Below, piece after piece: positions 26,719 to 34,980 of a DNA stretch of 64,000 nucleotides (position 1 is its first letter; every line of letters begins with the position of its first letter). The position numbers and the translations under genes were made by a program. The stretch is taken from NCBI GenBank assembly GCA_017472735.1, contig JAFUOD010000006.1, positions 1 through 64,000 of the forward strand. Direction: 5' to 3'. The stretch comes from Oscillospiraceae bacterium (lineage in GTDB: Bacteria; Bacillota; Clostridia; Oscillospirales; Ruminococcaceae). The notes beneath the pieces were generated by a model. That model did not search any database and was not told the origin of the DNA. It worked only from the letters and a program-made list of their open reading frames with translations.

Positions 26719-27216
26719 ATGGGCTCAAAAATCACAACAATCCCCTTCAAGGGTACACCCGAGCAGGAAGCTCAGCTTGTTGAGTACATTAACGGTATCA
26801 AGCACGAAAAGGGTTGCTTAATGCCTGTAATGCAGTACGCTCAGGGTATCTACGGATATCTTCCTATCGAGGTGCAGTCGATCATCGCTCGTGAACTCGG
26901 TATTCCCATGGAAAAGGTTTACGGTGTTGCGACATTCTACGCTCAGTTCTCACTCGTTCCCAAGGGTGAATACACCATTTCGGTATGCTTGGGTACAGCT
27001 TGCTATGTAAAGGGCTCGGGCGACATTTTTGAAAAGCTTTCAGAAAAGCTTGGAATTAAAGAGGGTGAAACCACTCCCGACGGTAAGTTCTCGCTTGTTG
27101 GCTGCCGCTGCATCGGCGCTTGCGGCCTCGCACCCGTACTTACTGTTAATGAAGACGTTTACGGCCGTTTAACTGTTGACGACGTAGACGGTATCCTTGC
27201 AAAGTACATGAACTAA
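26719..27216 (+). CDS. hydC: NuoE-like hydrogenase subunit (HydC)
   Basis: A 165-residue thioredoxin-fold [2Fe-2S] protein, the NuoE/24-kDa type. Cluster ligands appear as CLGTACYVKGS and GCRCIGACGLAPV. The N-terminal half has the QYAQGIYGYLPIEVQ and VYGVATFYAQF blocks of the family. In trimeric bifurcating hydrogenases HydC partners HydB and HydA. AAGGAGG precedes the ATG at 26719; a longer reading is leader sequence. It is the first gene of the operon, but HydB and HydA come seven genes later, which is an unusual split. Codon use is strongly biased as in highly expressed genes. Confidence 0.92.
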   Translation: MGSKITTIPFKGTPEQEAQLVEYINGIKHEKGCLMPVMQYAQGIYGYLPIEVQSIIARELGIPMEKVYGVATFYAQFSLVPKGEYTISVCLGTACYVKGSGDIFEKLSEKLGIKEGETTPDGKFSLVGCRCIGACGLAPVLTVNEDVYGRLTVDDVDGILAKYMN

Positions 27217-27248
27217 CAACCTTTAAGCTTTAGAAAAGGAAAGTCTGT

Positions 27249-27605
27249 ATGAAAATTACCACTGTCAAGGAATTGTTAGAAGCCAAAGTCGTCTGGGGCG
27301 AAGAGCTTATCGGTAAGCATGTTTATTCCGCTTGCGGAAGTGACATGATGAGTGACGTTTTGGCATACGTAAAAGATCAGTCTGTGCTGCTCACCGGGCT
27401 TGTAAACTCTCAGGTCATCAGAACGGCAGAAATGATGGACATGGTTTGTATCGTTTTCGTCCGTTCCAAGGTGCCTAATCAAGAGATGATCGAGCTTGCA
27501 AAGGAAAGCGGAATCGTTTTGCTTGCAACTGACAAGCGTTTATATGACGCTTGCGGTATTCTCTATTCAAACGGCCTCTGCGGAAACGGAGTTCGCCGTG
27601 GATAA
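27249..27605 (+). CDS. DRTGG domain protein 1
   Basis: A 118-residue protein matching the DRTGG domain, a small fold also found in HPr kinase-linked and CBS/phosphotransacetylase proteins. Features: VVWGEELIGKHVYSACGSDMMSD, then SVLLTGLVNSQVIRTAEMMD and a C-terminal KRLYDACGILYSNGL. It is regularly found next to [FeFe] hydrogenase genes; the biochemical role is unknown, possibly ligand sensing. The next gene overlaps its stop. Confidence 0.82.
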   Translation: MKITTVKELLEAKVVWGEELIGKHVYSACGSDMMSDVLAYVKDQSVLLTGLVNSQVIRTAEMMDMVCIVFVRSKVPNQEMIELAKESGIVLLATDKRLYDACGILYSNGLCGNGVRRG

Positions 27606-28023
27606 CAACATCATCAGATTCACTTATAATGTTGACGGAACCGATTTTACATCGGCAGGTCAGGCCTCTGTAATGCTTAAAAAGAACTTACGTCAGCTTG
27701 GCATTTCGCCCGACACCATTCGCCGTGCTTCAATTGCAATGTATGAGGGTGAGATCAACATGGTCATCCATGCCGACGGCGGCGTTGCCGAGATCGAAGT
27801 AAGTGAAGAATGTATTACCATAATGCTTAAAGACAGCGGCCCCGGAATTAAGGACATAAATCAGGCAATGCAGGAGGGATTCTCCACAGCGCCCGATGAT
27901 GTGCGTTCTTTGGGCTTTGGCGCAGGCATGGGTCTGCCGAACATGAAGCGCTACTCGGATCATATGGAAATTGAATCGGAGCTTGGCGTAGGCACTACCA
28001 TCACAATGAAGATCAATATCTGA
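27598..28023 (+). CDS. GHKL ATPase, RsbW/anti-sigma-like
   Basis: A 141-residue single-domain histidine-kinase-like ATPase. The N box is YEGEINMVIHA, G1 is DSGPGI and G2 is GFGAGMGLPNMKRYSD. There is no dimerisation or sensor domain, which resembles SpoIIAB/RsbW serine kinases. It may phosphorylate a Ser/Thr target (inference). GTG start at 27598 with GGAG 6-7 bases upstream; it overlaps the DRTGG gene by 8 bases, so the two are translationally coupled. Confidence 0.85.
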   Translation: MDNNIIRFTYNVDGTDFTSAGQASVMLKKNLRQLGISPDTIRRASIAMYEGEINMVIHADGGVAEIEVSEECITIMLKDSGPGIKDINQAMQEGFSTAPDDVRSLGFGAGMGLPNMKRYSDHMEIESELGVGTTITMKINI

Positions 28024-28039
28024 CGGACGGAGTTAGGTT

Positions 28040-29332
28040 ATGAAAAAGTATGAACATTCGGTGTCGCTTGATATTTCAAAATGCACTGGCTGCACGACCT
28101 GCATCCATCGCTGCCCGACAGAGGCAATAAGAGTAAGGGATCATCACGCAGTTATAGACCCTGACAGGTGCATCGACTGCGGCGAATGTATAAGAGTCTG
28201 CCCTCACAGCGCAAAAAAAGCTGTTTTAGACCACATTAAGGACATGGATAGGTTCAAGTGGAAGATAGCACTACCGGCACCCAGTCTTTATGCCCAGTTT
28301 GATAACCTGGACGATGTGGACTACGTTTTGCAGGGACTTTTGGACATCGGCTTTGACGATGTGTTCGAGGTCTCCCGTGCGGCAGAGCTTGTTTCGGCTT
28401 ACACCCGCAACTATTTAAAGGTCGAGGGTATTCAAAAGCCGGCAATCAGCTCGGCGTGCCCCGCTGTTGTAAGACTTATCGAGCTGAGATTCCCTTTTCT
28501 TAAAGATAACATAATCAAAATGCTTCCTCCAATGGAGATAGCGGCGAAGATAGCACGAGATGAAGCAATTGAAAAGCACCCCGAGCTTAAGCCCGAGGAT
28601 ATAGGCGTCTGCTTCATATCTCCCTGCCCTGCCAAAATGAGTTATGTTAGAAACGGATTTTCCGATTATGAAAGCAAGGTCGATGTCGTTGTACCGATAA
28701 GCGACATTTACTTCATGCTTATCAACGCCATGAATCATGCCAAGCAGCCGAAATGCTTGTCCGAATCGGGAATGATAGGCATTGGTTGGGCCACCTCGGG
28801 TGGTGAAGCAACCGCAATTTTCAACGAAAAATATCTTGCCGCCGACGGCATAGATAACGTTATAAGAGTTTTGGATCAGATCGAAGACGGTAATATTCCC
28901 CATCTTGAATTTGTTGAGCTTAACGCCTGCACAGGCGGCTGCGTAGGCGGTGCATTAACAATGCAAAACCCGTTTATTGCAAAAGCAAGACTGCAAAGCT
29001 TAAGAAGGTATTTGCCTGTTTCGCAGAATTTTTTATCTGCCGATGAGGCGAAATACATACCCGAATATTACTTCTTTAACGAGCTGCCCGAATACTCACC
29101 CATCTCACGCTTAAGCGAGAGCATGGCGGAATCTATGAGAATGATGGCGGACATTCAAAAGCTGAAGAACCAGCTTCCCGGATATGACTGCGGCTCCTGC
29201 GGAGCGCCTACCTGCCGTGCCTTTGCCGAAGATGTGGTTAAGGGCTTGGCAAAAAAGAGCGACTGCGTTTTAATAATGAAGGACCGCTTTAAGGAATATC
29301 TTGAAAATCTCGGAGAGGACGAGGACAAATGA
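28040..29332 (+). CDS. HydS-like divergent [FeFe] hydrogenase
   Basis: A 430-residue iron-sulfur protein. The N-terminus has two [4Fe-4S] motifs (CTGCTTCIHRCP and CIDCGECIRVCP). The hydrogenase domain keeps equivalents of four H-cluster Cys: SSACPAV (~138), ISPCPAK (~196) and ACTGGC (~297, 301). The catalytic enzymes' CC pair is AC here and the GGGQP end is GGALT, as expected for a sensory rather than catalytic type. The C-terminus has a further [4Fe-4S] domain (YDCGSCGAPTCRAFAEDV). Unlike the classic HydS it has no PAS domain. It probably senses H2 or redox state and signals through the adjacent ATPase and phosphoesterase genes (inference). Confidence 0.87.
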   Translation: MKKYEHSVSLDISKCTGCTTCIHRCPTEAIRVRDHHAVIDPDRCIDCGECIRVCPHSAKKAVLDHIKDMDRFKWKIALPAPSLYAQFDNLDDVDYVLQGLLDIGFDDVFEVSRAAELVSAYTRNYLKVEGIQKPAISSACPAVVRLIELRFPFLKDNIIKMLPPMEIAAKIARDEAIEKHPELKPEDIGVCFISPCPAKMSYVRNGFSDYESKVDVVVPISDIYFMLINAMNHAKQPKCLSESGMIGIGWATSGGEATAIFNEKYLAADGIDNVIRVLDQIEDGNIPHLEFVELNACTGGCVGGALTMQNPFIAKARLQSLRRYLPVSQNFLSADEAKYIPEYYFFNELPEYSPISRLSESMAESMRMMADIQKLKNQLPGYDCGSCGAPTCRAFAEDVVKGLAKKSDCVLIMKDRFKEYLENLGEDEDK

Positions 29333-29652
29333 CGGTAAGCGAATTTGCTATCAAACACTCTCTTAAAACTCTTTGCCTGCCCGACGACAGAGAAATAACC
29401 GGCGGCTATGTTGGCGACCTTTTATCGTGGGTGATGGGCAGGGCTCAATCGGGTGATGCCTGGATAACTATAATGTCGAACCAAAACATTTTGGCGGTGG
29501 CAACACTTGCCGATGTTTCGTGCATTATTCTTGGCGAAGGTGTAACCCTTGATGAAGAATTAATTAAAACAGCTAACGACAAAGGCATTAATGTTTTGGC
29601 AAGCGAGGCTGACACTTTTAAGCTTTCGGCAATGCTTGCGTGCGAGCTGTAG
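29329..29652 (+). CDS. DRTGG domain protein 2
   Basis: A 107-residue second DRTGG-type protein: GGYVGDLLSWVMGRAQSGDA, ITIMSNQNILAVATL, CIILGEGVTLDEEL. It overlaps the HydS-like gene by 4 bases (ATGA), implying coupled synthesis. Related to, but clearly diverged from, the DRTGG gene at 27249. Confidence 0.8.
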   Translation: MTVSEFAIKHSLKTLCLPDDREITGGYVGDLLSWVMGRAQSGDAWITIMSNQNILAVATLADVSCIILGEGVTLDEELIKTANDKGINVLASEADTFKLSAMLACEL

Positions 29653-29655
29653 ATC

Positions 29656-30393
29656 ATGAACAGATATTATTACGATCTGCACGTTCATTCATGCTTATCC
29701 CCCTGTGCCGACAACGACAATACCCCCTGTAACTTGGCGGGCTTTGCGGCTATCTCGGGAATAAACATAATGGCGCTGACAGACCACAATAGCTGTAAAA
29801 ACTGCCCGGCATTTTTTGCTGCGGCAAAGGCTTACGGGGTAATTCCCGTTGCCGGAATGGAGCTTACGACCTCGGAAGACATTCACGTTGTTTGCTTGTT
29901 CGAAACGTTGGAACAAGCAATGGCATTTGATGAAGAGGTTGATTCTAAGCGAATTAAAATTAAAAACCGCGAAGATATTTTTGGTGAGCAGCTTATTTTA
30001 AACGAGAACGACGAGATCATCGGAAAAGATGAGCATCTTCTGTCAAACGCTACTATGATTTCTTTGGACGAAGCGCCTGCTTTGGTTAAAGAGTTCGGCG
30101 GCGTATGCTATCCTGCTCACATTGACCGTGACGCCAATGGGATAATTGCTGTTTTGGGTACCCTGCCCGAAACTCCTGCATTTAACTGTGTTGAGATTCA
30201 CGGGCTTGAAAATATCGAGCCTTATAAAGAGCGCTTTAATTTAAAGGATAAAGTTATTGTTATAAGCTCGGACGCGCACTATTTACAGGATGTGCGCGAC
30301 AAGGAAAACTTCTTCGAGCTTGACGACGAGCCTTACAGCTCGGCTTTGGTAAGAAAAAGACTTTTCGAGTTGTTAAGAGGTGACTGCAAATGA
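29656..30393 (+). CDS. PHP-domain phosphoesterase
   Basis: A 245-residue metal-dependent phosphoesterase of the PHP superfamily. The metal sites are visible in DLHVHSCLSP, ALTDHNSCKNC, GMELTTSEDIHVVCLF, CYPAHIDRD and VISSDAHYL. Family members hydrolyse nucleotides, histidinol phosphate or protein-linked phosphate; the role here is probably to reverse a signal made by the neighbouring ATPases, by analogy with kinase/phosphatase pairs beside sensory hydrogenases. It starts 3 bases after the preceding stop and overlaps the next gene by 4. Confidence 0.88.
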   Translation: MNRYYYDLHVHSCLSPCADNDNTPCNLAGFAAISGINIMALTDHNSCKNCPAFFAAAKAYGVIPVAGMELTTSEDIHVVCLFETLEQAMAFDEEVDSKRIKIKNREDIFGEQLILNENDEIIGKDEHLLSNATMISLDEAPALVKEFGGVCYPAHIDRDANGIIAVLGTLPETPAFNCVEIHGLENIEPYKERFNLKDKVIVISSDAHYLQDVRDKENFFELDDEPYSSALVRKRLFELLRGDCK

Positions 30394-30941
30394 AAGAACT
30401 CTCTTTAAACATTCTTGATATCACCGAGAATTCGGTTAAGGCAGGCGCAAGTCTGACCGAAATTCTGATTGACGAGCAAGCCGATATCATTACCATTACA
30501 ATTAAGGATAACGGCTGCGGAATGAGCGAAGAGGTCGTAAAAAAGGTCACCGACCCTTTTTACACCACCCGAACAACAAGAAGCGTAGGCTTGGGGATCC
30601 CTCTTTTTAAGCTTGCAGCCGAAATGACAGGCGGCAGCTTTGAGATCTCCTCGAGAGAAAAAGCACTTTATCCGAGCAGTCACGGAACCGTGACTAAAGC
30701 CTCTTTTAACAAAAATCACATTGATTTTACTCCTTTGGGGGATGTGGCGTCGACTCTGACGACTTTAATTCAGGGTCACCCCGAAACGGACTTTTACTTT
30801 AGCCACAAAAAAGGCGAGGGCGAAGTTACCCTCGACACCCGTGAGCTGAGAGCTATCCTCGGCGACGAGGTATCGCTTGGCGAATATGAAGTTATTAAAT
30901 GGATTGAAGGTTTTTTATCAGAACAATATCAATCTTTGTAA
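30390..30941 (+). CDS. GHKL ATPase, histidine-kinase-like
   Basis: A 183-residue protein starting directly with a GHKL fold: N box LDITENSVKAGA, G1 DNGCGM, F box TDPFYTTR and G2 SVGLGIPLFKLAAEM. No phosphoacceptor His domain is visible, so it is not a complete sensor kinase. The C-terminal ~60 residues (DVASTLTTLIQGHPETDFYF) are a conserved tail in hydrogenase-linked ATPases (recollection, unverified). Different subtype from the RsbW-like ATPase at 27598. Confidence 0.82.
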   Translation: MKELSLNILDITENSVKAGASLTEILIDEQADIITITIKDNGCGMSEEVVKKVTDPFYTTRTTRSVGLGIPLFKLAAEMTGGSFEISSREKALYPSSHGTVTKASFNKNHIDFTPLGDVASTLTTLIQGHPETDFYFSHKKGEGEVTLDTRELRAILGDEVSLGEYEVIKWIEGFLSEQYQSL

Positions 30942-30967
30942 ATTTTAAAAGAAGGGACGAAATTTAT

Positions 30968-31339
30968 ATGAAATCATTGGCTGAATTGCAGGCAATCAAG
31001 GACAGAATGAAGGACAGAGTTGTTCTTCGTGAAGGCGTTGACGAAAAGCGCGTTGTTGTTGGTATGGCTACCTGCGGTATCGCTGCCGGCGCTCGTCCTG
31101 TTCTTAACGCTTTTGTTCAGGGCGTTAACGAAGCAGGTCTTGCAAGCAAGGTTAGTGTTACACAAACCGGCTGCATCGGCATCTGCCAGTATGAGCCTGT
31201 TGTTGAAATTTTTGAAGCAGGTAAAGAAAAAGTAACCTATGTTAAGATGACCGCTGAAAAGGCTGCAAAGGTTATTGAAGAGCATCTTAAAAACGGTAAG
31301 GTAGTAGCTGAATACACCATTGCCAATTATAAAGCATAA
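30968..31339 (+). CDS. [2Fe-2S] thioredoxin-like ferredoxin
   Basis: A 123-residue thioredoxin-fold [2Fe-2S] ferredoxin. Cluster ligands are in VGMATCGIAAGARPV and QTGCIGICQYEPV. It lies 15 bases before hydB and is the kind of small ferredoxin seen beside HydB/HydA in Clostridia (the HydD position in some). It likely shuttles electrons within the hydrogenase complex. Codon use returns to the high-expression type here. Confidence 0.88.
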   Translation: MKSLAELQAIKDRMKDRVVLREGVDEKRVVVGMATCGIAAGARPVLNAFVQGVNEAGLASKVSVTQTGCIGICQYEPVVEIFEAGKEKVTYVKMTAEKAAKVIEEHLKNGKVVAEYTIANYKA

Positions 31340-31354
31340 GTGGAGGTATTTTAA

Positions 31355-33184
31355 ATGATTCGTACACACGTATTAGTTTGCGGCGGTACCGGATGTACCT
31401 CTTCGGGCAGTAAGTCCATTCAGGCTGCTTTTAACGAAAACATTGAAAAGTTTGGACTTGCCGAAGAAGTAAAGCTTGTACAGACCGGTTGCTTCGGTCT
31501 TTGTGCCGAAGGCCCCGTTGTAATCGTATATCCCGACGGCACCTTCTACAGCCGTGTGGCTGCTGAAGATGTTGCAGAAATCGTTGAAGAGCATTTGCTT
31601 AAGGGCCGCCCTGTTAAGAGACTTGAATATAAGGGCGCTTTGGCAGAGGATGCACACGAAGAAGACGTTTATGCAAACATTTCTTTGAACGACACTGCGT
31701 TCTACAAATCTCAGACCCGTGTTGCACTTCGCAACTGCGGTGTTATCAACCCCGAAGAAATTGACGAATATATCGCAATGGACGGTTATCAGGCTTTAGG
31801 TAAGGTTCTTACCGAAATGACCCCCGATGACGTAATCCAGTGCATCTTAGATTCCGGTCTTCGCGGACGCGGCGGCGGCGGATTCCCCACCGGCAGAAAG
31901 TGGGCTTTGACCGCTGTTAACAAGGCTCCTCAGAAATATGTTGTTTGTAACGCCGACGAAGGCGACCCGGGCGCTTTCATGGACCGTTCCGTTTTGGAAG
32001 GCGACCCTCACGCAATTATCGAAGCTATGGCAATTGCAGGTTATGCGATCGGTGCAAGCCAGGGTTACGTTTACGTTCGTGCTGAATACCCCATTGCTGT
32101 TGCACGTTTGCAAATGGCTATTGACCAGGCTCGTGAATACGGACTTTTGGGCAACAATATCTTTGGCACCGACTTCTCGTTCGACCTCGGTATCCGTTTG
32201 GGTGCAGGCGCATTCGTTTGCGGTGAAGAAACCGCACTTATGACCTCTATTGAAGGCAACCGCGGCGAACCCAGACCTCGTCCTCCTTATCCTGCTGTTA
32301 AAGGCTTGTTCGAATCTCCTACTTTGGAAAACAACGTTGAAACCTTTGCAAACGTTCCTCAGATCATTCTTAAGGGTGCTGACTGGTTCGCTTCCATGGG
32401 TTCTGAAAAGTCCAAGGGCACAAAGGTATTCGCGCTCGGCGGCAAGATCAAGAACACCGGCCTTGTTGAAATCCCTATGGGTACGACCTTGCGCCACATC
32501 ATCGAAGAGATCGGCGGCGGTATTCCTAACGGCAAGAAGTTCAAGGCAGCTCAGACAGGCGGCCCTTCCGGCGGATGTATTCCGGCAAGCCTTATCGACA
32601 CCGAAGTTGACTACGACAACCTCGTAGCAATCGGCTGTATGATGGGTTCGGGCGGTCTTATCGTAATGGACGAAGACACCTGTATGGTTGACATGGCTAA
32701 GTTCTTCTTGGAATTCACCGTTGATGAATCCTGCGGTAAGTGTACACCCTGCCGTGTTGGTACAAAGAGACTTTTGGAAATGCTTAACAAGGTAACCAGC
32801 GGCAAGGCAACTCTTGAGGACCTCGATGCTATTGAACAGCTTTGCTACTACATCAAGGAAAACTCGCTCTGCGGCTTGGGACAGACAGCACCTAACCCTG
32901 TTCTTTCCACTATCAAGTTCTTCAGAGATGAATATTTGGCTCATATTGTTGATAAGAAGTGCCCTGCAGGCGTATGTAAGGATCTTCTTAAGTATGAGAT
33001 CATTAAGGACAAGTGTATTGGTTGTGGCATGTGTGCAAGACAGTGTCCTGCAAATGCTATCTCCAAGACCGATTACATAGCTCCCGGCAAGAAGCTTCCT
33101 GCACTTGCAATCGACACTGATAAGTGCGTTAAGTGCGGCGCTTGCGTTGGCGTATGTAAGTTTAAGGCAATTGTTAAGAATTAA
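31355..33184 (+). CDS. hydB: NADH-binding hydrogenase subunit HydB (NuoF-like)
   Basis: A 609-residue flavo-iron-sulfur protein. Residues 1-~110 are a thioredoxin-like [2Fe-2S] domain (CGGTGCTSSGS, QTGCFGLCAEGP). Then the NuoF core: GLRGRGGGGFPTGRKW (NADH site), CNADEGDPGAFMDRSVLEGD (FMN site), GEETALMTSIEGNRGEPRP, and the [4Fe-4S] motif ESCGKCTPCRVGTKRL. The C-terminus has two ferredoxin-type [4Fe-4S] motifs (CIGCGMCARQCP and CVKCGACVGVC). In HydABC enzymes this subunit exchanges electrons with NAD(H) and is a candidate bifurcation site. Confidence 0.96.
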   Translation: MIRTHVLVCGGTGCTSSGSKSIQAAFNENIEKFGLAEEVKLVQTGCFGLCAEGPVVIVYPDGTFYSRVAAEDVAEIVEEHLLKGRPVKRLEYKGALAEDAHEEDVYANISLNDTAFYKSQTRVALRNCGVINPEEIDEYIAMDGYQALGKVLTEMTPDDVIQCILDSGLRGRGGGGFPTGRKWALTAVNKAPQKYVVCNADEGDPGAFMDRSVLEGDPHAIIEAMAIAGYAIGASQGYVYVRAEYPIAVARLQMAIDQAREYGLLGNNIFGTDFSFDLGIRLGAGAFVCGEETALMTSIEGNRGEPRPRPPYPAVKGLFESPTLENNVETFANVPQIILKGADWFASMGSEKSKGTKVFALGGKIKNTGLVEIPMGTTLRHIIEEIGGGIPNGKKFKAAQTGGPSGGCIPASLIDTEVDYDNLVAIGCMMGSGGLIVMDEDTCMVDMAKFFLEFTVDESCGKCTPCRVGTKRLLEMLNKVTSGKATLEDLDAIEQLCYYIKENSLCGLGQTAPNPVLSTIKFFRDEYLAHIVDKKCPAGVCKDLLKYEIIKDKCIGCGMCARQCPANAISKTDYIAPGKKLPALAIDTDKCVKCGACVGVCKFKAIVKN

Positions 33185-33201
33185 TAAAGGAGGTATGGAC
33201 T

Positions 33202-34980
33202 ATGGATATGTTAAATATTAAGGTAAACGGTTTATCCGTTGAAGCTCCCAAGGGTTCTACTGTCCTCGAAGCAACCAGAATTGCTGGCGTGGAAATCCCC
33301 ACCCTTTGCTTCCTTAAAGAAATCAACGAAATCGGTGCTTGCCGTATCTGCGTTACCGAAGTCGCTGAAATGAGAGGTCCTGCTTTGGGCCCCAAGAGAC
33401 TTGTTGCTGCTTGTGTATACCCCGTTACCGAGGGTATGGAGATCTACACCAACACTCCTAAGGTTATTGCGGCTCGCCGCCAGACCTTGGAACTCATCCT
33501 CTCCACTCACGAAAGAAAGTGCTTAAGCTGTGTAAGAAGCGGCAACTGCGAATTGCAGAAGCTCTGCCGTGACATGAAGGTTGATAACGAAGGCAAGTTC
33601 GACGGTGCTACCATTAAGTACGACATCGACGAAACTGCTGCTCACATGATAAGAGACAACAACAAGTGCATTTTGTGCCGTCGCTGCACCGCAGTTTGCG
33701 AAAAGACTCAGGGCATCGGCGTTATCGGTGCTAACGAACGCGGCTTTAAGACACACATCGGCTCTGCATTCGACCTTGGTTTGGGCGACACCTCTTGTGT
33801 ATCCTGCGGTCAGTGTATCGCAGTTTGCCCCACCGGCGCTTTGGCTGAAAAGGACAACACTGCTGATGTATTTGCCGCTTTGGCTGATAACACCAAGCAC
33901 GTTATTGTTGAAACTGCTCCTGCAGTTAGAGCTGCTTTGGGCGAAGAATTTGGTATGGCAATCGGTACCGATGTTGAAGGTAAGATGGTTGCTGCACTTA
34001 GAAGACTCGGCTTTGAAAAGGTGTTCGACACCAACTTCGCTGCTGACCTTACCATTATGGAAGAAGCTAACGAGTTCTTGGATAGAGTTAAGAACGGCGG
34101 CAAGCTGCCCCTTATCACCTCTTGCTCACCCGGATGGGTCAAGTACTGCGAGCACTACTTCCCCGAGCTTACCGAAAACCTTTCGAGCTGCAAGTCTCCT
34201 CAGCAGATGTTCGGCGCTATCGCTAAGAGCTATTATGCTGAAAAGATGGGCTGGAACCCCGAGGATATCGTAGTTGTATCTGTTATGCCTTGTACTGCTA
34301 AGAAGTTCGAGATCGGCAGAGACGACGAAAACGGCGCAGGCGTTCCCGATGTTGATTATGCAATCACAACCCGTGAGCTTGCAAGAATGATCGACCGTGC
34401 AGGCATTCAGTTTACTGCCCTCCCCGATGAAGAATTTGACGCACCTTTGGGCCTTTACACAGGCGCAGGCGTTATCTTCGGCGCTACCGGCGGTGTTATG
34501 GAAGCAGCTTTAAGAACCGCTGTTGAAACCCTTACAGGTGAAAACTTGCCCAATGTTGACTTTGTTGATGTTAGAGGCACAGCCGGCATTAAGGAAAAGA
34601 CCTATGAAGTTGCAGGCATGACCGTTAAGGTTGCTGTAGTTTCGGGCCTTGCTAATGCAAGAGAGCTTTTGAACAAGATCGTTTCGGGTGAAGCTGATTA
34701 CCACTTCATCGAAATCATGGGATGCCCCGGCGGCTGTGTAAACGGCGGCGGTCAGCCCCAGCAGCCCGGTTATGTTCGCAACACAACCGATATCAAGGCA
34801 CTTCGTGCATCTGTTCTTTACGGCTTGGATAAGAACGCAGCTATAAGAAAGTCTCACGAGAACCCCGCTATTCAGGAACTCTATAAGGAATTCTTGGGCG
34901 AGCCCGGCTCTCACAAGGCTCACGAGCTCTTGCACACAACTTACGTTAAGCGCGGAATTAAGGATGACCCCAGAAGCTGA
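33202..34980 (+). CDS. hydA: [FeFe] hydrogenase catalytic subunit HydA
   Basis: A 592-residue multi-cluster hydrogenase. The N-terminus is a plant-type [2Fe-2S] domain (GACRICVTEV), then a His-Cys3 [4Fe-4S] site (HERKCLSCVRSGNCELQ), two [4Fe-4S] motifs (CILCRRCTAVC and CVSCGQCIAVCP), and the H-cluster domain: L1 ITSCSPGWV (~307), L2 VMPCTAKKFE (~362), L3 EIMGCPGGCVNGGGQP (~507-511). L1 has Ser at the second position of the usual CC pair. AAAGGAGG lies 8 bases before the ATG. With HydB and HydC it should form a soluble NADH/ferredoxin-coupled H2-producing enzyme. Confidence 0.96.
   Translation: MDMLNIKVNGLSVEAPKGSTVLEATRIAGVEIPTLCFLKEINEIGACRICVTEVAEMRGPALGPKRLVAACVYPVTEGMEIYTNTPKVIAARRQTLELILSTHERKCLSCVRSGNCELQKLCRDMKVDNEGKFDGATIKYDIDETAAHMIRDNNKCILCRRCTAVCEKTQGIGVIGANERGFKTHIGSAFDLGLGDTSCVSCGQCIAVCPTGALAEKDNTADVFAALADNTKHVIVETAPAVRAALGEEFGMAIGTDVEGKMVAALRRLGFEKVFDTNFAADLTIMEEANEFLDRVKNGGKLPLITSCSPGWVKYCEHYFPELTENLSSCKSPQQMFGAIAKSYYAEKMGWNPEDIVVVSVMPCTAKKFEIGRDDENGAGVPDVDYAITTRELARMIDRAGIQFTALPDEEFDAPLGLYTGAGVIFGATGGVMEAALRTAVETLTGENLPNVDFVDVRGTAGIKEKTYEVAGMTVKVAVVSGLANARELLNKIVSGEADYHFIEIMGCPGGCVNGGGQPQQPGYVRNTTDIKALRASVLYGLDKNAAIRKSHENPAIQELYKEFLGEPGSHKAHELLHTTYVKRGIKDDPRS

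What the first reader, a model, noticed from the sequence alone, without database searches (positions are those of the whole stretch)
26719..34980. Signalling module embedded inside a bifurcating hydrogenase operon
Between hydC and the ferredoxin-hydB-hydA block sit six genes in a tightly overlapped run: DRTGG, RsbW-like ATPase, HydS-like hydrogenase, DRTGG, PHP phosphoesterase and a second GHKL ATPase. This looks like a complete sense-and-signal circuit (sensor hydrogenase, two ATPases/kinases, a phosphoesterase and two ligand-binding DRTGG proteins) inside the operon of the enzyme it may control. Sensory hydrogenases beside kinase/phosphatase genes are known in Clostridia; the exact wiring and the targets are, to my knowledge, not described.
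Basis: partly seen in the sequence, partly recalled or inferred. Interest (0 to 1): 0.75.

Follow-up and report, generated by a model that had tools for sequence, protein, structure and literature searches.

The report
Hydrogen-sensing control cassette for energy enzymes
Many anaerobic bacteria carry a fixed set of small genes built around a hydrogenase of the sensor type, and this set travels with the enzymes that trade hydrogen, ferredoxin and NADH, so it is a good candidate for the control circuit behind fermentation hydrogen.

Summary
The six genes are real: 27249-30941, inside hydC-[DRTGG1, SpoIIAB/RsbW-like, HydS, DRTGG2, PHP]-HATP-fdx-hydB-hydA. HydS is group D-like (no PAS; Cx2Cx4Cx16C tail; altered H-cluster pocket). 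The association is not chance. All 80 close-relative loci keep the order of the six as far as their contigs reach. In 392 Clostridia genomes, HydS and the RsbW-like protein occur together in 181, alone in 3 and 4, neither in 204.

The 'six-gene module' is better split. A five-gene core (67 of 79 hand-picked wider loci have all five in order) lies before, inside or after the hyd operon, apart from it, or before rnf genes. In three genomes the core at rnf lacks HydS, which sits elsewhere. The second ATPase (HATP) sits in the hyd or rnf operon yet follows the core: among HydA-bearing genomes it is in 174 of 178 with HydS or RsbW-like, 11 of 149 with neither.

Best reading: an H2/redox-responsive regulatory cassette acting on ferredoxin/NAD enzymes through HATP. 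The kinase/phosphoesterase wiring is inferred, not shown. My searches found no paper describing the cassette; three relevant papers were not held.

The parts
26719..27216 (+). hydC (NuoE-like 2Fe-2S subunit of bifurcating hydrogenase)
   Evidence: PF01257 170.7 bits
27249..27605 (+). DRTGG1 (DRT1), core gene 1; overlaps the next gene by 8 nt
   Evidence: PF07085 weak in the window copy (22.1 bits), 54 of 54 family members match; D32 and S35 invariant in 85 of 85, T49 in 84 of 85
27598..28023 (+). SpoIIAB/RsbW-like GHKL ATPase (candidate Ser/Thr kinase), core gene 2
   Evidence: HATPase_c and HATPase_c_2 over cut-off; profile hits SpoIIAB structures 1til/1th8, E 2-3e-9; E50, N54, D79, G81, G83 invariant in 85 of 85
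28040..29332 (+). HydS, group D-like [FeFe] hydrogenase, core gene 3
   Evidence: PF02906 104.8 bits, 2x[4Fe-4S], PF04060 tail, no PAS; Ala at the C299 position in 143 of 154, Ser/Thr/Ala at the M353 position in 154 of 154
29329..29652 (+). DRTGG2 (DRT2), core gene 4; paralogue of DRT1
   Evidence: PF07085 34.7 bits; D30, S33, T47, N53 invariant in 82 of 82; profile match to DRT1, prob 98.4
29656..30393 (+). PHP-domain phosphoesterase, core gene 5
   Evidence: PF02811 37.9 bits; H9, H11, D43, H44, E69, H77, H155, D206, H208 invariant in 79 of 79
30390..30941 (+). HATP: histidine-kinase-type ATPase domain without DHp, plus about 75-aa C-terminal extension; in hyd or rnf operon, tracks the core genome-wide
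   Evidence: PF02518 50.9 bits over residues 8-101; co-occurrence
30968..31339 (+). thioredoxin-like [2Fe-2S] ferredoxin of the hyd operon
   Evidence: PF01257 24.8 bits, at cut-off
31355..33184 (+). hydB (NuoF-like, FMN/NAD subunit)
   Evidence: PF01512, PF10589
33202..34980 (+). hydA, NADH-dependent [FeFe] hydrogenase group A6-type
   Evidence: NF040763 895 bits, cut-off 765

Best explanation
The genes form an H2/redox-responsive regulatory cassette for ferredoxin/NAD-converting enzymes (HydABC, in some lineages Rnf). Proposed working: the group D-like hydrogenase HydS changes state with H2. On either side of it in the gene order stands an adaptor-enzyme pair, DRTGG1 with a SpoIIAB-type kinase and DRTGG2 with a PHP phosphoesterase. 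These set the state (most likely phosphorylation) of a partner, and the result reaches the target through HATP, an ATP-binding protein encoded within the target operon. Shown here: the genes, their conservation and order, intact catalytic residues, and genome-wide coupling of core and HATP, also in genomes where they are not neighbours. Inferred from homologues: H2 sensing, ATP binding, kinase and phosphoesterase chemistry. Inferred with no direct evidence: which protein is phosphorylated, and that HATP acts on HydABC/Rnf activity or assembly rather than on transcription.
For: Order of the six genes kept in 80 of 80 near loci as far as contigs reach; five-gene core in order in 67 of 79 wider loci. 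HydS and RsbW-like in 181 genomes together, 3 and 4 alone, 204 neither, of 392. HATP: 174 of 178 HydA+ genomes with HydS or RsbW-like, 11 of 149 with neither; stratified by family, 16 of 19 mixed families have both a HATP+ core+ and a HATP- core- member. 25 of 25 genomes whose fetched core stretch holds no HATP have HATP somewhere; 15 of these stretches are short on at least one side, but 10 have at least 5 kb on both sides. In three unlinked cases that I fetched, HATP sits between hydC and fdx (L195-L197). rnf genes follow in 7 loci, in 3 of them without HydS in the core. Invariant catalytic residues. RsbW-HATP distance coupling 0.32 though not neighbours (exploratory). I recognised no recurring transcription factor beside the core (by eye, ORFs of 90 aa or more).
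Against: No experiment. 11 genomes have HATP without HydS or RsbW-like, and 4 have HydS and RsbW-like without HATP. Core-less HydABC genomes are common (149 HydA+ of 204), so HydABC does not need the cassette. Distance-matrix coupling with HATP is about zero for DRTGG2 and HydS, against a simple DRTGG2-HATP or HydS-HATP contact. No fusions between core genes were found. In L144 and L147 PHP is missing, so the phosphoesterase is not indispensable. No structure could be predicted.
Confidence: 0.55

Rival explanations
1. Assembly, maturation or repair cassette: the GHKL proteins act as ATP-driven chaperones, and PHP and the DRTGG proteins help build or repair HydABC/Rnf; HydS donates electrons or checks redox state.
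For: HATP lies within the structural operons and tracks the core. In PMC8880783 (one passage seen) HisK, HydD and HydP of the A. mobile operon are not among the five subunits of the purified NiFe-HydABCSL and are assumed to serve maturation and/or regulation.
Against: 149 HydA+ genomes lack HydS and RsbW-like, so they are not required to build HydABC. The RsbW-like protein best matches the SpoIIAB anti-sigma kinase, not chaperone GHKL families.
Confidence: 0.2
2. Classical transcriptional partner switch: the RsbW-like protein is an anti-sigma factor, DRTGG1 its antagonist, and a sigma factor or regulator elsewhere drives the hyd operon.
For: SpoIIAB homology (E 2.1e-9); DRTGG1 and RsbW overlap in 78 of 78 near loci measured and lie within 30 nt in 71 of 76 wider loci, like the spoIIAA-spoIIAB pair (recalled).
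Against: I recognised no recurring sigma factor, STAS or DNA-binding gene next to the core (by eye; Pfam on a few); TIGR01925 (SpoIIAB) cut-off not reached, 61 vs 135 bits. A sigma factor in trans was not searched for.
Confidence: 0.15
3. The kinase arm here opposes the SpoIIE-type phosphatase of the group C HydS cluster of the same genome, so two H2 sensors share one phosphoprotein.
For: This genome has both loci. Group C-type phosphatase in 70 of 184 HydS-D genomes and 49 of 208 others; among 204 core-less genomes it is in 8 of 11 with HATP and 39 of 193 without.
Against: 114 of 184 genomes with HydS-D lack that phosphatase, so it is not a needed partner; counts not corrected for phylogeny.
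Confidence: 0.1

Closest known systems
TamHydS, group D (M2e) [FeFe] hydrogenase of Thermoanaerobacter mathranii (PMC8163306, PMC13104023; passages seen)
   Same: N-terminal two [4Fe-4S], C-terminal Cx2Cx4Cx16C, no PAS, C299 lost, M353 to Ser, beside a bifurcating HydABC and a histidine kinase-like ATPase.
   Different: M497 position is Asn here (Leu in TamHydS). The passages seen do not mention DRTGG, PHP or an RsbW-like protein; they name an AraC regulator, which I did not see among the ORFs next to this operon (by eye).
Group C HydS with SpoIIE/PP2C phosphatase (R. albus hydS-hydA2 cluster; hfs operon of Thermoanaerobacterium)
   Same: Sensor-type [FeFe] hydrogenase tied to Ser/Thr phosphosignalling and to other hydrogenases; R. 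albus cluster 111-fold down in co-culture (PMC6776011, passages).
   Different: Has PAS and a phosphatase; the passages name no DRTGG, PHP or RsbW-like genes. A separate cluster of that kind exists in this genome (L012).
SpoIIAB-SpoIIAA / RsbW-RsbV partner switches
   Same: SpoIIAB-like kinase fold, catalytic N-box and G boxes; small partner gene just upstream (for SpoIIAA recalled).
   Different: Partner is a DRTGG protein, not STAS; no sigma factor recognised nearby; longer ATP lid (LGFGAGMG); SpoIIAB model cut-off not met.
HisK/HydD/HydP of the A. mobile bifurcating NiFe-hydrogenase operon; HydD of A. woodii
   Same: Accessory genes in a HydABC operon; the A. mobile ones are not part of the purified enzyme (PMC8880783, PMC9304861, passages). 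A. woodii HydD is an extra subunit without predicted cofactor (PMC6288185, passage).
   Different: Whether A. mobile HisK or A. woodii HydD is HATP was not tested here.

Membership tests
Group D [FeFe] hydrogenase | two N-terminal [4Fe-4S] motifs, H-domain, C-terminal Cx2Cx4Cx16C | tested here: met
   Cys384/387/392/409 in the window copy
Group D [FeFe] hydrogenase | no PAS domain | tested here: met
   no PAS match; protein ends 21 residues after the last Cys
Group D [FeFe] hydrogenase | loss of the C299 proton-shuttle Cys; M353 replaced | tested here: met
   Ala in 143 of 154; Ser/Thr/Ala in 154 of 154
Group D [FeFe] hydrogenase | placement with TamHydS in a tree | not tested
   no named group D reference sequence was fetched
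Group C [FeFe] hydrogenase | PAS domain | tested here: not met
   the C20 protein of the same genome has a sub-threshold PAS match, 20.6 vs 22.6 bits
SpoIIAB/RsbW kinases | curated SpoIIAB/RsbW model cut-off | tested here: not met
   TIGR01925 61.3 vs 135; TIGR01924 17 vs 155 bits
SpoIIAB/RsbW kinases | N-box Glu/Asn and G boxes | tested here: met
   invariant in 85 of 85; aligned to 1til; residue roles recalled
SpoIIAB/RsbW kinases | STAS partner and sigma factor | tested here: inconclusive
   none recognised beside the core (by eye); whole genome not searched
PHP phosphoesterases | metal-binding His/Asp/Glu set | tested here: met
   nine residues invariant in 79 of 79; residue roles recalled
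DRTGG domain | PF07085 cut-off | tested here: inconclusive
   DRT2 met (34.7), window DRT1 22.1 vs 25.2; 54 of 54 DRT1 relatives match at E<=0.01
Sensor histidine kinases | DHp domain with phospho-His | tested here: not met
   HATP: only HATPase-type Pfam families in the 49 members scanned
Bifurcating HydABC (A6-type HydA) | NF040763 cut-off, with HydB and HydC | tested here: met

The most novel reading that the evidence does not exclude
A new kind of bacterial gas-sensing phospho-switch: a hydrogenase sensor between two DRTGG-adaptor arms (SpoIIAB-type kinase, PHP phosphoesterase) that gates ferredoxin/NAD energy converters after translation, through an operon-encoded ATPase (HATP). The same switch can be re-plugged from HydABC to Rnf and can run without its hydrogenase at that locus. 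DRTGG1/2 would stand in for STAS proteins, with the invariant Ser35/Ser33 (or the near-invariant Thr49 and invariant Thr47) as candidate phospho-sites.
Probability: 0.22. Interest if true: 0.85.

Novelty: new variant of a known kind. Interest (0 to 1): 0.62.

Why it matters
How group D 'sensory' hydrogenases pass on their signal is called an open question in print (PMC8163306, passages), and a 2026 study (PMC13104023, passages) challenged the earlier idea that their C-terminal cluster does it. This cassette names likely partners. HydS of this type is in 184 of 392 Clostridia genomes sampled, and the cassette links H2 sensing to HydABC and Rnf, enzymes at the centre of H2, ethanol and acetate output in anaerobes. 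It makes the question testable with a handful of small proteins.

Tried and rejected
Fusions: lengths of 528 aa for HydS in L070/L072 looked like HydS-DRTGG2 fusions; re-reading the frames showed separate genes, an artefact of my end-extension. No fusions of core genes in 159 loci. Structure prediction of DRTGG1 and HATP: switched off. PDB by sequence: DRTGG1 only weakly hits CBS-pyrophosphatase DRTGG (3l2b) and AF_1212 (2ioj), DRTGG2 none, PHP only weak PHP hits, so no substrate can be named. Neighbour clusters (45 shown, ORFs of 90 aa or more, named by eye): I recognised no recurring transcription factor; most of the clusters listed are shadow frames. Group C phosphatase as an obligatory partner: rejected (70 of 184). 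Unlinked HATP in G019 (L194): dropped as a case, since the contig starts with DRTGG2-PHP, so the core is probably split by a contig break. Distance-matrix coupling (40 loci with all ten genes) is exploratory: DRT1-RsbW 0.46, DRT2-PHP 0.41, HydS-DRT2 0.34, DRT1-HydS 0.33, RsbW-HATP 0.32, others 0.26 or less; several of these pairs are neighbours.

Papers: searches, of which I saw listings only, often capped (9: 25 of 42; 15: 20 of 23; 65: 15 of 386; 68: 15 of 26; 92: 12 of 14; 93: 12 of 26). 'HydS + hydrogenase + DRTGG' gave 0 papers, 'DRTGG + hydrogenase' one (D. vulgaris, unrelated). Fifteen papers were opened, passages only, none read whole. Not held: Zheng 2014, Calusinska 2010, Poudel 2016; the last two may discuss gene neighbourhoods (recalled) and may already show part of this.

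Limits: one search keeps only close relatives. The 79 wider loci were chosen by me to span families, not at random. Searches listed all positive genomes but only part of the places, so adjacency was counted on fetched loci only. The mixed families were picked and typed by eye and I may have missed some.
Full report
What is there. The window holds one operon-like run, hydC - DRTGG1 - RsbW-like - HydS - DRTGG2 - PHP - HATP - fdx - hydB - hydA, 26719-34980 on the + strand. Joints within the inserted run are -8, +16, -4, +3, -4 nt. GC does not differ from the surroundings.

The sensor. HydS carries two N-terminal [4Fe-4S] motifs, the H-domain, and a C-terminal four-Cys motif with the Cx2Cx4Cx16C spacing, and then stops: no PAS. 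In an alignment of 154 HydS of this type (window, 80 close-relative loci, 73 wider loci), the position aligned to C299 of CpI is Ala in 143, the M353 position is Ser, Thr or Ala in all 154, and the four cluster-binding Cys are kept in 153-154 (CpI numbering from papers and recall). Land et al. 2020 (PMC8163306, passages) give loss of C299 and M353 to Ser, M497 to Leu, for group D TamHydS; the M497 position here is Asn. I call it group D-like, since no tree with named references was made.

The other proteins. The profile of the RsbW-like family hits SpoIIAB structures at E 2-3e-9 and RsbW at 1e-4. The N-box Glu50/Asn54 and the G boxes are invariant in 85 of 85. The curated SpoIIAB and RsbW cut-offs are not met. 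It has a longer ATP lid, LGFGAGMG. The PHP protein keeps nine metal-site residues in 79 of 79. HATP is only a histidine-kinase-type ATPase domain plus a tail of about 75 residues with no Pfam match. DRTGG1 and DRTGG2 are paralogues. They share an invariant D-x-x-S (D32/S35 in 85 of 85; D30/S33 in 82 of 82) and a Thr at one aligned position (T49 in 84 of 85; T47 in 82 of 82).

How widely it is kept: near relatives. One scan of genome contigs found 92 relatives and kept the best 80, all at least 64% identical, mostly Clostridia MAGs and 16 labelled Coriobacteriales/Coriobacteriaceae, Atopobiaceae or actinobacterium. In these, RsbW-like is upstream and DRTGG2 downstream of HydS in 80 of 80; DRTGG1 is seen in 79, PHP in 78 and HATP in 77 of 80, the misses being at contig ends. 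One locus (L072) shows no fdx hit between HATP and hydB.

How widely it is kept: the class. Of 392 Clostridia genomes, HydS (E<=1e-50) is in 184 and the RsbW-like protein (E<=1e-20) in 185; both in 181, HydS alone in 3, RsbW-like alone in 4, neither in 204. I fetched stretches from this sample, chosen to span families; 79 were usable. All five core genes are in order on one strand in 67; 7 are cut by contig ends; 2 lack HydS (L161, L162); 2 lack PHP (L144, L147); 1 has no DRTGG2/PHP in the 1.7 kb available (L125). The commonest arrangement is core then hydC-HATP-fdx-hydB-hydA (25 loci). The window's order, core between hydC and HATP, occurs in 7. Three have the hyd operon divergent, and 17 show the core alone in the stretch, several of these cut short. 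So the core moves as a unit relative to the hyd operon, and HATP mostly stays with the hyd operon.

Rnf. In L146, L156, L161, L162, L163 and, fetched later, L182, the core is followed by HATP and then rnf genes; in L153 rnfC/D-like ORFs follow hydB. RnfC_N was confirmed by Pfam for L161 and the Fe-S pattern of RnfB for L163; the other subunits are named by similarity clusters and by eye. In L161, L162 and L182 the core has no HydS. In those three genomes HydS lies elsewhere; in two it is near an Nqr/Rnf-like BCDEF run (L179 directly; L180 with one reversed ORF between; Pfam NQR2_RnfD_RnfE checked on L177 only). In the third (L181) it is not.

HATP tracks the core, not HydA. HydA of the A6 type (E<=1e-150) is in 327 of 392 genomes, HATP (E<=1e-25) in 194. 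Among HydA-bearing genomes HATP is in 174 of 178 with HydS or RsbW-like and in 11 of 149 with neither. Within families that contain both kinds (19 families found by eye, HydA held constant) the counts are 66 with and 3 without HATP among core+, 10 and 63 among core-, and 16 of 19 families show both a HATP+ core+ and a HATP- core- member. In 25 of 25 genomes whose fetched core stretch holds no HATP, HATP is found somewhere. Fifteen of these stretches are too short on at least one side to exclude a neighbour; ten have at least 5 kb on both sides. In three unlinked cases that I fetched (L195-L197) HATP sits between hydC and fdx; a fourth (L194) proved to be a probable contig break. This dependence without linkage is the best evidence that core and HATP work together. 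Genomes are related, so the p-values (3.5e-103 for HydS-RsbW, 1.4e-14 stratified for HATP) overstate certainty.

The exceptions. Eleven genomes have HATP without HydS or RsbW-like; four have HydS and RsbW-like without HATP. Eight of the 11 keep a DRTGG2 relative: in G029 it sits between hydC and HATP, in G059 just upstream of hydC at a contig start, in G221 and G367 divergent from hydC, in the other four apart. Eight of the 11 also have the group C-type SpoIIE phosphatase, against 39 of 193 other core-less genomes. This hints that a group C sensor can replace the core. It is not corrected for phylogeny.

The second H2 locus of this genome. C20 (L012) carries adhE, an APH-like kinase, two small thioredoxin-like ferredoxins, a group C-like HydS (559 aa, PAS match below cut-off), a SpoIIE-domain phosphatase (390 aa) and another [FeFe] hydrogenase (adhE and ferredoxins named by eye). 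It resembles the R. albus cluster reported 111-fold down in co-culture in PMC6776011 (passages).

How it probably works. HydS reports H2; DRTGG1 with the SpoIIAB-type kinase and DRTGG2 with the PHP phosphoesterase flank it as two adaptor-enzyme arms; HATP carries the output to HydABC or Rnf. Distance-matrix coupling after removing a HydA/B/C/fdx background is highest for DRTGG1-RsbW (0.46) and DRTGG2-PHP (0.41), is 0.32 for RsbW-HATP, and about zero for DRTGG2-HATP and HydS-HATP (40 loci). Neighbourhood on the chromosome could cause the first two; the zeros speak against HATP binding DRTGG2 or HydS directly. Phosphorylation is inferred from fold only.

Prior knowledge. Land et al. [quoted passage not shown] The 2026 TamHydS paper (PMC13104023, passages) found the C-terminal cluster unreduced under 1 atm H2. 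PMC8880783 (passage) assumed HydD, HydP and HisK of the A. mobile operon to serve maturation and/or regulation. In the listings of searches and the passages opened I found no paper naming DRTGG, PHP or an RsbW-like protein with a HydS; Calusinska 2010, Poudel 2016 and Zheng 2014 are not held.

Verdict. Observation confirmed; interpretation right in direction, wrong in unit and too narrow in target. The gene set is new to me in print, the principle (sensor hydrogenase plus phosphosignalling) is known, so I file it as a new variant of a known kind.

Noticed in passing
L012:6610-14892 (G000 contig C20): Second H2-signalling cluster in the same genome: adhE, APH-like kinase, two small ferredoxins, group C-like HydS, SpoIIE-type phosphatase, another [FeFe] hydrogenase; R. 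albus type.
   Followed up: partly
L179 (8986-10242 -) and L180 (8906-10174 +): A HydS of the group D type near an Nqr/Rnf-like BCDEF run, in genomes whose RsbW/PHP core lacks HydS; I saw no NqrA in the run (by eye). Possibly an H2-linked Nqr-like complex.
   Followed up: partly
L116, L127, L130, L132, L134, L135, L144, L156, L161, L163, L165, just upstream of DRTGG1: A protein of about 300 aa with an N-terminal membrane-anchor-like stretch (SPOR domain in L132; no Pfam match in L161) directly upstream of or overlapping DRTGG1 in 11 loci.
   Followed up: no
L117:11408-14566, L118:12134-15205, L149:3-494, L164:4786-6516: GGDEF-EAL (cyclic di-GMP) proteins close to the core in four loci (Pfam run on L117 and L164; L118 and the L149 fragment by similarity).
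   Followed up: no
window 33202-34980 (HydA): The HydA L1 motif reads TSCSPGW, with Ser where prototypical enzymes have the ligand-side Cys (recalled); whether this is usual for bifurcating HydA was not checked.
   Followed up: no
L051, L054-L056, L059-L062, L064, L070, L072-L075, L077, L079: 16 MAG loci labelled Coriobacteriales/Coriobacteriaceae, Atopobiaceae or actinobacterium carry the run in window order with HydS about 68-72% identical: transfer between phyla or binning error.
   Followed up: no
G278 (L102 and L103): One genome with two complete cores, one alone and one before hydC-HATP.
   Followed up: no
L205 (G029): hydC-DRTGG2-HATP-fdx-hydB in a genome with no HydS-D or RsbW-like match: a possible minimal form of the cassette.
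   Followed up: partly
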